Assembly: GCA_902796305.1 (NCBI GenBank)
Contig: CADBOJ010000049.1
Span: 1-49,624, forward strand
Reading direction: 5' to 3'
DNA length: 49,624 nt
Origin: an uncultured bacterium
Lineage (GTDB): Bacteria > Cyanobacteriota > Vampirovibrionia > Gastranaerophilales > Gastranaerophilaceae
How positions within the stretch are numbered: the stretch's first letter is position 1; each line of letters opens with the position of its first letter. The notes beneath the pieces were generated by a model, which saw only the letters and a program-made list of their open reading frames with translations, did not search any database and was not told the origin of the DNA. The position numbers were made by a program, and so were the translations under genes. Of the stretch, positions 1,572 through 29,245 are shown piece after piece.

Positions 1572-3710
1572 ATGAAAAAATATTTAAAATCTTTCCTCAT
1601 AACATTATTATGTCTGCATTCTTTTAATACTTGCTTTGCAAACACAGAAGAATCTTTATATCCTGATTTTTCATATATTTTCCTCGGAGAAGATAAATAT
1701 GAAAACTATAACCGTAAAATGTTCAATTTTAATCAGGGACTAAATAAATATGTAATTCGCCCTCTTAACGTAATCTGGGCATCCGTAATGCCTCAATACG
1801 GAATGGATAGAATATACGGAATTTCAAATAACATAGAATTTCCGATAAGATTTGTCAGCTGTCTTGTTCAAAGAGATTTTAAGGCTGCATTTCATGAAAG
1901 TGAAAGATTTATTATAAATTCAACAATAGGCATTGCGGGTATGTTTGACCCTGCAAAGCATATTTTAAAAATTGAACAGGTAAATGAAGATATGGAGCAG
2001 GCTCTTGCAAAGTGCCATGTTAAATCAAAAAGATTTTTTGTTTTTCCGTTTATTTATTTTACAACATACAGAGGTTTAGCAGGCAAGGTTCTGGATGCAG
2101 CTTTAAACCCCACGACTTATGTCGGCTCTCCAATTATAGCGGCAATTAAAGCAGGGCTTACAATAAACCGTGTTTCTTTTGCACAGGCAATGTTAAAAGC
2201 TTTGGAAATAAATTTTCCGGATGCTTATGATGTATATAAGACTTTATACGGGGTAGATCGTTATTCTAAACAAAATAACCTTGACAGAGTAGATGTTATT
2301 TCGCAGTTAACCACGGAAAAACCTGTCAAAACAAGGAAAAGAATTAAAAAGAAAATACGCCAAGCAGACTTAAAAGTTTCCGCAAGTATATCAAATGAAG
2401 CATCATACGAAGATAATGCTACTCGATATAAATATGAGGAAATCGTTATAGATACGATTATCACTCAGCCGAAAACAAACAAAAAGCCTGTAAAAAAAGA
2501 AAAATTAAACGTAGAGCCGAATATTCTTTTGGATAACTATAATGCTCAAAATCCTTTCACGGACTCCATGAGAACAACTCTGTTTTATATTCCCGAAACG
2601 GATAAATCAATATGGAATGAACTTTCAATTTGGAACAGAAGCTTTAAAAACAGAATTAAAGCTTCGAACATAAATCTTGCCGAAGGAAGAGAAAATTATA
2701 CTTACAGATACATTTTGCAAAAAGAAAAAAATGCGCCCCTTGCCGTTGTTTACCCGTCAACCGGCGCAGGTGTTTTTTCAAATCACCCCATTATGTTTGC
2801 AAAAATATTTTATGATTTGGGTTATTCCGTTTTAATAATCGGAAATCCTTTCCAGTGGGAATTTATGAAAAGCATGCCCGAAGATTATCGTCCCGGATTA
2901 CCCGAAAACGATGCCAAAATGGTCAGAATGGCAACAGGAAAAATCATTAATCATTTAGAAAAAAAATATAAAAGAGAATTTAAAAATAAAGTTATTTTGG
3001 GTACGTCATACGGTGCTATGACATCTTTATTTATGGCAAATCAGGAATACAAGGAAAATACTCTCGGAAATGCCGAATTTATTGCGATTAACCCGCCTGT
3101 TGATTTATTCTATTCCGTAAATTTACTGGATGATGTATATAAAAATTTAAATATGCAGCCTGATGAACTAAAAGATATGATGGCAGACATTGCAGCAAAA
3201 ACAATTAAATTGTATAAATCCAAAAAAGAAATTGATTTTACGGTTAACAATCTGCCTTATAGCGAAAAAGAAAGCAAATTTTTAACAAGTTTTCTTATGC
3301 ATCATAAATTGGCTGATGTTATTTTCGTAATTGAAAATACACCAAACAATAAAAAAAGCGGTATTTATGAAATAACAAACGACATGGGATATAAAGAATA
3401 CAGCGAAAAATATCTTCTTGTAAATACAAATTCGGAAAACAAGAAAATGCTGAATAATTCAAAATTAACATATATATCAAATTACCTTAAAAACGGAAAA
3501 AATTATAAAATATATCATTCCTCAAATGATTATCTGGTTAGTAAGGCTCAGTTGAAACAATTGAAACAAATGACGGGAGACAATCTTATTTTGATTGATA
3601 ACGGTTCGCATTTGGGCTTTTTATACAGAAGTGAATTTATGGAAGATTTAAAAAATACAATTATTGAAATTAAATCAAAAAATATGAACGTAGTTGACGA
3701 AAAGCTATAA
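1572..3710 (+). CDS. MlaA (VacJ)-like domain fused to an alpha/beta-hydrolase-type domain, exported
   Basis: A 712-residue two-part protein. Residues 1-24 look like a signal peptide ending CFA before NTEE. A lipobox is not evident, unlike classical MlaA lipoproteins. Residues about 35-215 match MlaA/VacJ, the outer-membrane component that removes phospholipids from the outer leaflet: YENYNRKMFNFNQGLNKYVI, then RFIINSTIGIAGMFDPA. A lysine-rich linker (about 240-310) follows. Residues about 370-705 look like a serine hydrolase: GTSYGA with Ser479 as nucleophile elbow, Asp653 in SSNDYLV and His680 in GSHLGFL are good triad candidates. Standard MlaA is about 250 residues, so the C-terminal half is an addition. 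Inference: a periplasmic lipid-transport protein with an attached lipase or esterase. No other mla genes are in the window. No clear ribosome site precedes the ATG. Confidence 0.82.
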   Translation: MKKYLKSFLITLLCLHSFNTCFANTEESLYPDFSYIFLGEDKYENYNRKMFNFNQGLNKYVIRPLNVIWASVMPQYGMDRIYGISNNIEFPIRFVSCLVQRDFKAAFHESERFIINSTIGIAGMFDPAKHILKIEQVNEDMEQALAKCHVKSKRFFVFPFIYFTTYRGLAGKVLDAALNPTTYVGSPIIAAIKAGLTINRVSFAQAMLKALEINFPDAYDVYKTLYGVDRYSKQNNLDRVDVISQLTTEKPVKTRKRIKKKIRQADLKVSASISNEASYEDNATRYKYEEIVIDTIITQPKTNKKPVKKEKLNVEPNILLDNYNAQNPFTDSMRTTLFYIPETDKSIWNELSIWNRSFKNRIKASNINLAEGRENYTYRYILQKEKNAPLAVVYPSTGAGVFSNHPIMFAKIFYDLGYSVLIIGNPFQWEFMKSMPEDYRPGLPENDAKMVRMATGKIINHLEKKYKREFKNKVILGTSYGAMTSLFMANQEYKENTLGNAEFIAINPPVDLFYSVNLLDDVYKNLNMQPDELKDMMADIAAKTIKLYKSKKEIDFTVNNLPYSEKESKFLTSFLMHHKLADVIFVIENTPNNKKSGIYEITNDMGYKEYSEKYLLVNTNSENKKMLNNSKLTYISNYLKNGKNYKIYHSSNDYLVSKAQLKQLKQMTGDNLILIDNGSHLGFLYRSEFMEDLKNTIIEIKSKNMNVVDEKL

Positions 3711-22377: not shown

Positions 22378-23025
22378 TCAATCAATATAATCATTAATTC
22401 TTTCAGGGTCAAGGTACATATTTAATTCATCCGGACCTCTGTATAAACCTGTTATTTTTGATTTTTCAATTGCATCTTCAATCTGTTTTTCGGTATTAAA
22501 ATCCGTTCCTCTAAATCCCATTTTATGATAAAAAGGAACGGGCGAACCTGCATCATAATTCACGGTGCAGGCAAAAAGGCTTACTCTTCCTCCATATCCC
22601 ATATCAAAGCTTCTTTTGACAGCTTCTTTTATTAAAAATTTTCCCGCATTATGCCCCTTGGAATAAATAAGGGCAATTTCTGCCGTTCCGTTATTTTTTG
22701 AATAAAAATCGTTGTTACATTCAAATACGTCCTCATTGTTTATAACTTTCATTGCAGCTTTAATTCTGTTATTTTTCGAAGTTAAAACATAATATTTATC
22801 TTTATATATTTCAAGTTTTGCTTTTGTACCATCTATTTCAACTTCTCTTATTTCCGGCAGAAAGAACGGACAGGCTCTTCTGTAATTTTTTATCATATTG
22901 TTTACTTTTGCATCAAATTCATTTCGTCCGTATTCTCCTGCTATATCTTTATAACCGCCCTTAAAATTCGTTTTATTTAAGGTCGGCAGGGAATAATTAT
23001 AAAATTTGATTTTTTCTATATTCAT
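22378..23025 (-). CDS. GNAT-like acetyltransferase, copy 2 of a tandem pair
   Basis: A 215-residue protein. An N-terminal leader of about 25 residues contains TNFKGGYKDI. The C-terminal half has a GNAT acetyl-CoA motif A pattern, YSKGHNAGKFLIKEAVKRSF, then GRVSLFACTVNYDAGSPVPF and YHKMGFRG, the strand-helix-strand typical of GNAT enzymes. It ends NMYLDPERINDYID. Its upstream neighbour (23071-23718) is a paralogue with the same length and order. GNAT enzymes acetylate amines on proteins or small molecules; the acceptor is unknown. Gap to the paralogue 45 bases. Confidence 0.72.
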   Translation of the reverse strand: MNIEKIKFYNYSLPTLNKTNFKGGYKDIAGEYGRNEFDAKVNNMIKNYRRACPFFLPEIREVEIDGTKAKLEIYKDKYYVLTSKNNRIKAAMKVINNEDVFECNNDFYSKNNGTAEIALIYSKGHNAGKFLIKEAVKRSFDMGYGGRVSLFACTVNYDAGSPVPFYHKMGFRGTDFNTEKQIEDAIEKSKITGLYRGPDELNMYLDPERINDYID

Positions 23026-23070
23026 AATTTTTTAAAAACAAAAGGATAAAAAAATTGCTTTTTTGAATTA

Positions 23071-23718
23071 TTATCCTAAATACTCTTTAATTCTTTCAGG
23101 GTCAAGGTACATAAATACACCTTCGATATCTACATCTTTTCCTGTTTTTTCATATCTTTGAATTTCTTTATCAATTATTGATTGTTCTTTAGGGTCAAAT
23201 GCTTTAAATCCTAACTTATTATAAAAAGGAATGGGTGAACCCGCTTTTTCGAATATATTGCAGGCAAATATTATAACTCTTCCCTCGTAACCGAGCTTAA
23301 AACTTTTTTTAACAGCCTGTCTAACCATTTCTCTGCCTGCGCCGTTGCCTTTTGAATAAAGCCCTTTAATCTGGATTGCACCGATGTTATCGGAATAAAA
23401 ATCGGATGAACATCCTTTGGTTTTAGATTCTTGTATGCGCAGACTCATTGTGGCTTTTATATCGCCAATGCCTGATTTTAAGACATAAAAACCGTTATCA
23501 TACGAAACGAGAGTCAGTTTATTTCCGTTAACATTAACCGCTTCTTTTTTACAACTTGTTGCCAATGTATTATTGTGATTTATGTGTAGCCTTAAAATTT
23601 TATCAAATAAAATTTTATCCTCATCAGATTTGATATCTTTATATCCCGTAAAAGCCGGTTTTTGAACTTTCGGGCAGGAATTAGAATATATTATCGGATT
23701 AATTCTTGTGATTTTCAT
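23071..23718 (-). CDS. GNAT-like acetyltransferase, copy 1 of a tandem pair
   Basis: A 215-residue paralogue of the next gene. The leader has KPAFTGYKDIKSDED, then a beta-rich middle, then YSKGNGAGREMVRQAVKKSF, RVIIFACNIFEKAGSPIPF and YNKLGFKAF; the tail FMYLDPERIKEYLG matches that of copy 2. The R/K-x-x-G-x-G/A pyrophosphate loop is better preserved here (KGNGAG) than in copy 2 (KGHNAG). Located 34 bases after the U32 gene, so probably the fifth gene of the same operon. Role unknown. Confidence 0.72.
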   Translation of the reverse strand: MKITRINPIIYSNSCPKVQKPAFTGYKDIKSDEDKILFDKILRLHINHNNTLATSCKKEAVNVNGNKLTLVSYDNGFYVLKSGIGDIKATMSLRIQESKTKGCSSDFYSDNIGAIQIKGLYSKGNGAGREMVRQAVKKSFKLGYEGRVIIFACNIFEKAGSPIPFYNKLGFKAFDPKEQSIIDKEIQRYEKTGKDVDIEGVFMYLDPERIKEYLG

Positions 23719-27864: not shown

Positions 27865-28566
27865 ATGTTAAAATTTTCAAAAAAACACAATTACTCAGGA
27901 GTCCTGATTTGCACCGAGGGTATAGACGGCTCGGGAAAATCAACTCAAATTGAACTTTTATATAGCTGGCTGAAATCAAAAAATGCGGATGTAATTTTAA
28001 CACAGTGGAACAGCTCCGAGTTAATTGCAAATACTACAAAAAAGGCAAAAAAGAAAAATTTGTTATCCGGAAGAACATTTTCTCTTCTTCATGCCGTTGA
28101 TTTTGCGGACAGGTTGGAACGAACAATTAAACCTGCCCTAAAAGCGGGATTTATTGTCCTTGCAGACAGATATGTATATACTGCTTTTGCAAGAGATGTC
28201 GCAAGAGAGGTTGACCCCAAGTGGGTTAGAAATTTATACGGTTTTGCAATTAAACCCGATTTAACCTTTTATTTCGATGTATCTCCGAGAGATAGTCTGG
28301 AAAGGATTTGCTCAAACAGACAGCCGGGGTATTATGAAGCCGGAATGGATATGAAATTATCCAACAATCCTTATAAAAGCTATGTAATATTTCAAAACAG
28401 AATTGCCGAGCAGTATAGAAATATGCTTGATGAGTTTGATTTGATAAGAATTGATGCCAAGGATTCAATTCACAAAAAACAGGAGTTTATAAGAGCAAAG
28501 GTTTTAGAAGTTTTACAAAAAAATAAAATTAAGGTTGAAGATGAAAACAAAAGAAAAACTAAATAA
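27865..28566 (+). CDS. tmk: Thymidylate kinase family protein, copy 1
   Basis: A 233-residue P-loop kinase. Seen: CTEGIDGSGKSTQIELLYSW, the TMPK-type Walker A; HAVDFADRLERTIKPALKAG, matching the family helix before the second strand; and LADRYVYTAFARD, the DR(Y/W/H) motif. Thymidylate kinases make dTDP from dTMP. The usual DRY-x-x-S-S-x-A-Y-Q is replaced by YTAFARD, and the LID region (RQPGYYEAGMD) is unusual, so substrate specificity may differ. A second copy follows with a 26-base overlap. No other thymidylate kinase is in the window. Confidence 0.78.
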   Translation: MLKFSKKHNYSGVLICTEGIDGSGKSTQIELLYSWLKSKNADVILTQWNSSELIANTTKKAKKKNLLSGRTFSLLHAVDFADRLERTIKPALKAGFIVLADRYVYTAFARDVAREVDPKWVRNLYGFAIKPDLTFYFDVSPRDSLERICSNRQPGYYEAGMDMKLSNNPYKSYVIFQNRIAEQYRNMLDEFDLIRIDAKDSIHKKQEFIRAKVLEVLQKNKIKVEDENKRKTK

Positions 28567-29245
28567 AAAATCAAAAGAAATAAAAAAAGCGCACGGATAT
28601 GACGGTATGCTTATAGTGGTTGAGGGAACGGACGGTTCGGGAAAATCAACTCAGGTTAATATGCTTTCTCAATTTATTAAAGATAAAAGCTACGGTTGTA
28701 CGGTTTCCGAATGGAAAACTTCAAGACTTATATCGGGTGTAATTAATGAAGCAAAAGAAAAAAATATGCTGAATACCACAACATACTCTCTTCTTTACGC
28801 AGCAGACTATACCGACAGACTTGAAAACGAGATAATTCCCGCCCTGAAAGCAGGTTTTGTCGTTTTAATGGATAGATACATTTATACGGCATACGTTAGA
28901 GATTCTGTCAGAGGACATGACATAAACTGGGTAAAAAATCTGTACGGTTTTGCGCCGAAGCCTGATTTAGTGTTTTATCTTAATGTTCCGACCGAAATTT
29001 TAATAAAAAGACTTATAGCAAAGAACGGCGTTCTTGATTACTTTGCATCAGGCAGAGATATAGGTCTTTCAACGGATATTTACAGCAGTTTTGAAATTTA
29101 TCAAAAAAGATGCCTTGAAGAATATAAAAAACTTAAAAAAGAATATAATTTTATTGAGCTTGACGGCACAAAATCAAAAGAAGAACTGCACGAAAAAATT
29201 AAAACAAAAGTTCAGGAGCTTCTTGATAAAGGATTTGTTCAATAA
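28541..29245 (+). CDS. tmk: Thymidylate kinase family protein, copy 2
   Basis: About 234 residues, paralogous to copy 1 with the same order of motifs: VEGTDGSGKSTQVNMLSQF, YAADYTDRLENEIIPALKAG and LMDRYIYTAYVRDS, then LYGFAPKPDLVFYLNVP. The frame is open to a TTG at 28535; the ATG at 28541 is preferred because AAGG lies at suitable distance. The start lies inside copy 1, so the two are coupled. The N-terminal 15 residues are lysine-rich. Both keep Walker A and DR, so both may be active. TMPKs are homodimers, and a heterodimer is possible. Confidence 0.78.
   Translation: MKTKEKLNKKSKEIKKAHGYDGMLIVVEGTDGSGKSTQVNMLSQFIKDKSYGCTVSEWKTSRLISGVINEAKEKNMLNTTTYSLLYAADYTDRLENEIIPALKAGFVVLMDRYIYTAYVRDSVRGHDINWVKNLYGFAPKPDLVFYLNVPTEILIKRLIAKNGVLDYFASGRDIGLSTDIYSSFEIYQKRCLEEYKKLKKEYNFIELDGTKSKEELHEKIKTKVQELLDKGFVQ

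What the first reader, a model, noticed from the sequence alone, without database searches (positions are those of the whole stretch)
1572..3710. MlaA lipid-transport domain fused to an alpha/beta-hydrolase domain
The N-terminal 215 residues carry MlaA hallmarks; the C-terminal half has a GxSxG nucleophile elbow (Ser479) and plausible Asp653 and His680. MlaA normally extracts outer-leaflet phospholipid and has no catalytic domain. A single polypeptide that could extract and hydrolyse lipids would be a new arrangement for outer-membrane maintenance, or for attack on host or prey lipids. There seems to be no lipobox, so it may be soluble in the periplasm.
Basis: partly seen in the sequence, partly recalled or inferred. 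Interest (0 to 1): 0.7.

Follow-up and report, generated by a model that had tools for sequence, protein, structure and literature searches.

The report
MlaA lipid extractor fused to phospholipase
Gut-dwelling non-photosynthetic cyanobacteria carry a single protein that joins an outer-membrane lipid-extracting ring (MlaA) to a lipid-cutting enzyme related to Pseudomonas MlaY, so a repair pathway known elsewhere as two separate proteins has become one polypeptide.

Summary
ORF 1572-3710 (712 aa) is a real fusion. Residues 40-230 are MlaA (Pfam E=1e-40; the model matches MlaA crystal structures at Z 18). Residues 325-712 fold as an alpha/beta hydrolase. Ser479, Asp653 and His680 sit in canonical positions and never vary in 106 homologues.

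It is not an assembly error. In 386 genomes of the phylum, every MlaA hit lies in this fusion, apart from one copy cut by a contig end. All carriers belong to one order, Gastranaerophilales. This genome has two copies.

The C-terminal half is homologous to MlaY, the phospholipase of the P. aeruginosa MlaYZ pair (hhalign E=3e-26). The triad aligns with MlaY Ser187, Asp388 and His415, and the MlaA-family partner mlaZ is the neighbouring gene there. The fusion is best read as a one-polypeptide MlaZ-MlaY: it takes misplaced phospholipid out of the outer membrane and hydrolyses it. That function is inferred, not shown.

Differences from MlaYZ: reversed order, a linker of about 80 residues, no lipobox, and a host genome without detectable MlaC, LolA or PldA. 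A published survey reported MlaA absent from diderm Terrabacteria; this is an exception. New variant of a known kind.

The parts
1572..3710 (+). whole fusion gene, 712 aa (MlaA domain - linker - MlaY-like alpha/beta hydrolase)
   Evidence: same architecture in about 100 homologues
1572..1643 (+). signal peptide, cleaved by signal peptidase I by inference (NTCFA-NT); no lipobox
   Evidence: sequence; 96 of 99 homologues lack even a loose lipobox pattern
1689..2261 (+). MlaA domain, aa 40-230
   Evidence: PF04333 E=1e-40; model pLDDT 83, Z 18.1 to MlaA 5nup over 200 residues
2289..2543 (+). disordered linker, about aa 240-324; length varies 31-142 aa among homologues
   Evidence: low pLDDT; length count
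2544..3707 (+). MlaY-like alpha/beta hydrolase domain, aa 325-712
   Evidence: hhalign to MlaY alignment E=2.7e-26; Foldseek/VIA to esterases Z 19.7
3006..3008 (+). Ser479, nucleophile (GTSYG), after strand 472-478
   Evidence: aligned with MlaY Ser187; invariant 106/106
3105..3494 (+). helical cap, aa 512-641, between strand 500-506 and strand 645-650
   Evidence: secondary structure of the model
3528..3530 (+). Asp653, catalytic acid, after strand 645-650
   Evidence: aligned with MlaY Asp388; invariant 106/106
3609..3611 (+). His680, after strand 672-676
   Evidence: aligned with MlaY His415; invariant 105/105

Best explanation
The gene encodes a one-polypeptide version of the MlaZ-MlaY system. 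After Sec export and cleavage (inferred), the MlaA ring sits in the outer membrane and lets phospholipid that has strayed into the outer leaflet pass inwards (inferred from the MlaA fold). The lipid is taken up by the tethered hydrolase on the periplasmic side, and Ser479-His680-Asp653 hydrolyses its acyl ester (inferred from homology to MlaY and the conserved triad). The flexible linker of about 80 residues keeps the enzyme near the exit of the ring. Products would be recycled by other routes, perhaps the MlaFED transporter that this genome also has. Shown here: both domains, their folds, triad topology and invariance, homology of the second domain to MlaY, and fixation of the fusion in the lineage. 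Not shown: location, substrate, activity, direction of lipid flow.
For: MlaA domain over Pfam cut-off and with the MlaA fold. Hydrolase fold with canonical Ser/Asp/His placement and an invariant triad. Of 72,556 plasmid records the hydrolase half hits only six, and a MlaY query hits the same six; in the five loci opened an MlaA-family gene lies next to it (annotated in four; read from the ORFs in Fusobacterium). Profile match to MlaY E=2.7e-26; a MlaY profile finds only the two fusions in this genome. The triad aligns with the published MlaY Ser187/Asp388/His415. MlaY is described as a phospholipase working with MlaZ. The two halves diverge in step (Mantel r=0.855). Neither half was seen alone in the phylum. 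The lineage has diderm and lipid A genes (PMC4040986).
Against: No biochemical evidence for this protein. Identity to MlaY is only about 20%. Unlike P. aeruginosa MlaY (called a lipoprotein) there is no lipid anchor. The MlaA half did not group specifically with MlaZ (not rejected either, p-AU 0.26). Domain order is the reverse of the mlaY-mlaZ gene order. The substrate could differ from phospholipid. A sizeable share of well-assembled genomes of the family lack the gene, so it is dispensable in parts of the lineage.
Confidence: 0.75

Rival explanations
1. The hydrolase domain acts on lipid delivered by the MlaA ring but transfers the acyl chain (to lipid A, a lipoprotein or a glycan) or cuts another ester, so the fusion modifies the envelope instead of clearing phospholipid.
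For: Alpha/beta hydrolases include transacylases and thioesterases, and the structural matches are spread over many esterase types. The large helical cap is not diagnostic of a substrate.
Against: Specific homology to MlaY, a phospholipase, and not just to the superfamily.
Confidence: 0.15
2. The polypeptide is cut in the linker after export and works as two separate proteins, as in P. aeruginosa.
For: Long, variable, disordered linker.
Against: No split-gene form was found in about 100 homologues. The two halves diverge in step, though this would also hold for two co-working products.
Confidence: 0.1
3. A secreted or surface enzyme that attacks host or prey lipids.
For: Signal peptide; gut habitat of the lineage (record titles).
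Against: The MlaA domain is a device for the cell's own outer membrane; the MlaY homologue acts on the cell's own outer membrane; no conserved neighbours.
Confidence: 0.03
4. Assembly error or chance GxSxG in an unrelated C-terminal extension.
For: Single-protein Abhydrolase_1 score is below threshold.
Against: Fixed architecture in about 100 genomes, invariant triad, fold match Z 19.7.
Confidence: 0.01

Closest known systems
Pseudomonas aeruginosa MlaYZ (PA3238-PA3239; Guest et al. 2023 PNAS, as cited in PMC11131202, PMC11977310, PMC12569750)
   Same: An MlaA-family protein paired with a homologous alpha/beta hydrolase with the same Ser-Asp-His triad.
   Different: Here one polypeptide, MlaA domain first, linker of about 80 aa, no lipobox, Cyanobacteriota instead of Pseudomonadota, about 20% identity in the hydrolase.
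E. coli MlaA-MlaC-MlaFEDB
   Same: MlaA domain and fold; an MlaFED-type transporter in the genome.
   Different: No MlaC match in this genome or in 60 family genomes; lipid seems to be cut rather than shuttled; no lipobox.
MlaEFD-only systems of diderm Terrabacteria (Veillonella; PMC10665443)
   Same: A long MlaD-like protein (454 aa), no MlaC, no LolA match.
   Different: That survey found MlaA totally absent from diderm Terrabacteria; here it is present, always fused.
PldA (OMPLA)
   Same: Proposed role: destroy misplaced outer-leaflet phospholipid.
   Different: PldA is an outer-membrane beta-barrel (established knowledge) and unrelated in fold; no PF02253 hit in this genome.

Membership tests
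MlaA family (PF04333) | Sequence match over the curated cut-off across the whole domain | tested here: met
   139.8 bits vs cut-off 25, profile 2-192/195
MlaA family (PF04333) | Ring-shaped helical MlaA fold | tested here: met
   Z 18.1, 200 aligned of 204, next unrelated row Z 3.9
MlaA family (PF04333) | Lipoprotein anchor (common, not defining: SPaseI-type MlaA exist, PMC11131202) | tested here: not met
   No lipobox in the window protein; 3 of 99 loose pattern matches
MlaA family (PF04333) | Complex with a trimeric porin | not testable with these tools
   No experiment or complex prediction available
alpha/beta hydrolase superfamily | Fold | tested here: met
   Foldseek E 2.2e-7, VIA Z 19.7 with 237 aligned
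alpha/beta hydrolase superfamily | Ser on nucleophile elbow, Asp and His after later strands, conserved | tested here: met
alpha/beta hydrolase superfamily | Triad distances compatible with catalysis | not testable with these tools
   The structure tool returns no coordinates
MlaYZ system | Hydrolase homologous to MlaY with aligned triad | tested here: met
MlaYZ system | MlaA-family partner coupled to the hydrolase | tested here: met
   Same polypeptide; adjacent gene in the MlaY relatives
MlaYZ system | MlaA half belongs to the MlaZ branch rather than to canonical MlaA | tested here: inconclusive
   Fusions form their own clade; grouping with MlaZ neither supported nor rejected (p-AU 0.26)
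MlaYZ system | MlaY as a separate lipoprotein (as in P. aeruginosa; may not be defining) | tested here: not met
   Fused, no lipobox
MlaYZ system | Phospholipase activity and outer-membrane asymmetry phenotype | not testable with these tools
   Needs a bench assay

The most novel reading that the evidence does not exclude
A MlaC-independent 'extract and cut' machine in one polypeptide is the main outer-membrane asymmetry pathway of the Gastranaerophilales that carry it, replacing both the MlaA-MlaC shuttle and PldA; this genome carries a second, divergent copy with a different role.
Probability: 0.4. Interest if true: 0.7.

Novelty: new variant of a known kind. Interest (0 to 1): 0.55.

Why it matters
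How MlaZ passes lipid to MlaY is only inferred in Pseudomonas. A natural fusion is strong comparative evidence that the two work at one site, and it gives a single construct for structure and assay. It is also an exception to the reported absence of MlaA from diderm Terrabacteria, and it occurs without detectable LolA or MlaC, so it offers a test of how an MlaA ring works without a lipid anchor and without its usual carrier.

Tried and rejected
Assembly artefact: rejected (the one split case, G328, is cut by contig ends). Context clues: 80 loci with up to 4 kb of flank show no conserved neighbour. Sequence search of the hydrolase profile against PDB gave nothing useful. Viral-contig scans with both hydrolase profiles gave no relatives. 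The MlaA half modelled poorly in the full-length job (27 sequences) but well alone with 63. Using the E. coli locus as a centre for a survey of other phyla was not accepted, so fusions outside Cyanobacteriota were not surveyed beyond one genome-contig scan, of which only the best 80 of 205 hits are listed; those listed are Gastranaerophilales/Melainabacteria MAGs, or unnamed or apparently mislabelled MAGs, all with the same fusion. A look for the window copy in two congeners at the expected offset found nothing. The Guest et al. paper itself is not held; its content is taken from citing papers.

Full report
What is there. The window ORF 1572-3710 (+) encodes 712 residues without an internal stop. 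It starts with a signal peptide lacking a lipobox, continues with an MlaA domain at 40-230 (PF04333, E=1.1e-40), a disordered linker at about 240-324, and a C-terminal domain of about 388 residues. Pfam gives only a sub-threshold Abhydrolase_1 match for this domain, but 9 of 27 homologues match it at E as low as 1.3e-5.

Fold and triad. The full-length AlphaFold model (27 sequences) has confident C-terminal structure (pLDDT mostly 83-94 in 361-510 and 86-93 in 641-700). Foldseek against PDB gives alpha/beta hydrolases (best E 2.2e-7), and VIA-align gives Z 19.7 over 237 residues with the Pf2001 esterase. Ser479 follows strand 472-478, Asp653 follows strand 645-650, His680 follows strand 672-676, and a helical cap spans about 512-641: the standard layout. 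Distances could not be measured, as coordinates are not returned. The MlaA half, modelled alone with 63 sequences, reaches pLDDT 83 and matches MlaA structures at Z 18.1, the next unrelated row being 3.9.

Conservation and distribution. Ser479 and Asp653 are invariant in 106 aligned fusions and His680 in the 105 with sequence there, at 40-48% identity to the window protein in the first 27. PF04333 over 386 genomes of the phylum rings in 93, all in the window's own family or one further family of the same order, and every hit lies in a frame of 650-827 aa except one. That exception, G328, has the MlaA half at one contig end and the hydrolase half at another. With the hydrolase profile, 72 of 292 genomes match, all in the own family. 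A genome-contig scan found 205 encoding stretches; the best 80 are MAGs named Gastranaerophilales, Melainabacteria, cyanobacterium or just 'bacterium', with a few labels that look wrong, and all 80 encode the fusion. The two halves diverge in step (Mantel r=0.855). The linker varies from 31 to 142 residues.

The known counterpart. A review of MlaA describes P. aeruginosa MlaZ (PA3239), an MlaA homologue that hands misplaced phospholipid to MlaY (PA3238), which degrades it (PMC11131202). Further papers describe MlaY as a phospholipase with Ser187, His415 and Asp388 (PMC11977310; PMC12569750). tblastn of the window's hydrolase half against 72,556 plasmid records gave six hits (best E 1e-12): three P. 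aeruginosa, two Skermanella, one Fusobacterium. In each of the five loci opened, an MlaA-family gene follows directly. The P. aeruginosa protein (P0002, L154) has Ser187, Asp388 and His415 at exactly the published positions, so I take it to be MlaY; the record does not name it. In alignment these residues fall on Ser479, Asp653 and His680; in Fusobacterium the Asp388 position is Glu, with an Asp just before it. Profile comparison gives E=2.7e-26 over 319 columns, a MlaY search finds the same six plasmid records, and a MlaY profile searched in the window's own genome finds only the two fusions.

Differences. The extant operons run mlaY then mlaZ, whereas the fusion has MlaA first, so it did not arise simply by losing the stop codon of that gene order. 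The fusion has no lipobox, while P. aeruginosa MlaY is called an outer-membrane lipoprotein (PMC10474453); MlaA-type proteins without a lipoprotein signal are known, in P. aeruginosa among others (PMC11131202). The window's genome has MlaE, MlaF and a 454-aa MlaD in a row, but no match to MlaC (0 of 60 in the family), LolA or PldA. A survey of 1083 genomes stated that MlaABC are totally absent from diderm Terrabacteria (PMC10665443); the fusion is an exception. The lineage does have lipid A genes and a diderm envelope (PMC4040986).

Evolution. The window's genome carries two fusions. L002 groups with the single copies of its genus with full support, whereas the window copy groups with copies from other genera, so it is either an old paralogue or an acquired copy. 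The contig itself belongs to the genus (DNA polymerase I 72-93% identical to congeners). Among the 386 genomes only this one has two copies. A tree of the MlaA half against MlaZ and other MlaA did not resolve its origin: the fusions form one clade on a long branch, and joining them to MlaZ is neither supported nor rejected (p-AU 0.26).

Mechanism. Shown: both domains, their folds, triad topology and invariance, homology to MlaY, fixation in the order. Inferred: export, outer-membrane placement, phospholipid as substrate, handover within one molecule. The best reading is a one-polypeptide MlaZ-MlaY that removes misplaced phospholipid by extraction and hydrolysis.

Verdict. Real, well conserved, and a new variant of a known kind. 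The catalytic coupling is known from MlaYZ; the fusion, its phylum, the reversed order and the missing anchor and MlaC are, as far as the held literature shows, undescribed.

Noticed in passing
L002 (G000:C2, ORF L002:1378-3411): Second fusion paralogue in the same genome, about 40% identical overall; it is the copy that follows the genus tree, while the window copy does not.
   Followed up: partly
L154, L156, L157, L158: Two-gene mlaY-mlaZ operons in P. aeruginosa, Fusobacterium vincentii (overlapping genes) and Skermanella (followed by tamB); Fusobacteriota and Alphaproteobacteria therefore also have MlaYZ.
   Followed up: partly
L029 (G000:C13): A second, short MCE/MlaD-like gene (219 aa) without neighbouring MlaE/MlaF on the stretch read; MlaE also occurs twice (L030, L031).
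   Followed up: no
L050, L045, L156: Probable mislabelled records: 'Fusobacterium sp. CAG:439' and 'Muribaculaceae' contigs encode the Gastranaerophilales fusion; a 2.1 Mb 'plasmid' pSB055A looks like a chromosome.
   Followed up: no
window 22378-23718: Two tandem related 215-aa genes (acetyltransferase-like by eye) that look like a duplication.
   Followed up: no
window 27865-29245: Two tandem thymidylate-kinase-like genes (by eye), 233 and 236 aa.
   Followed up: no
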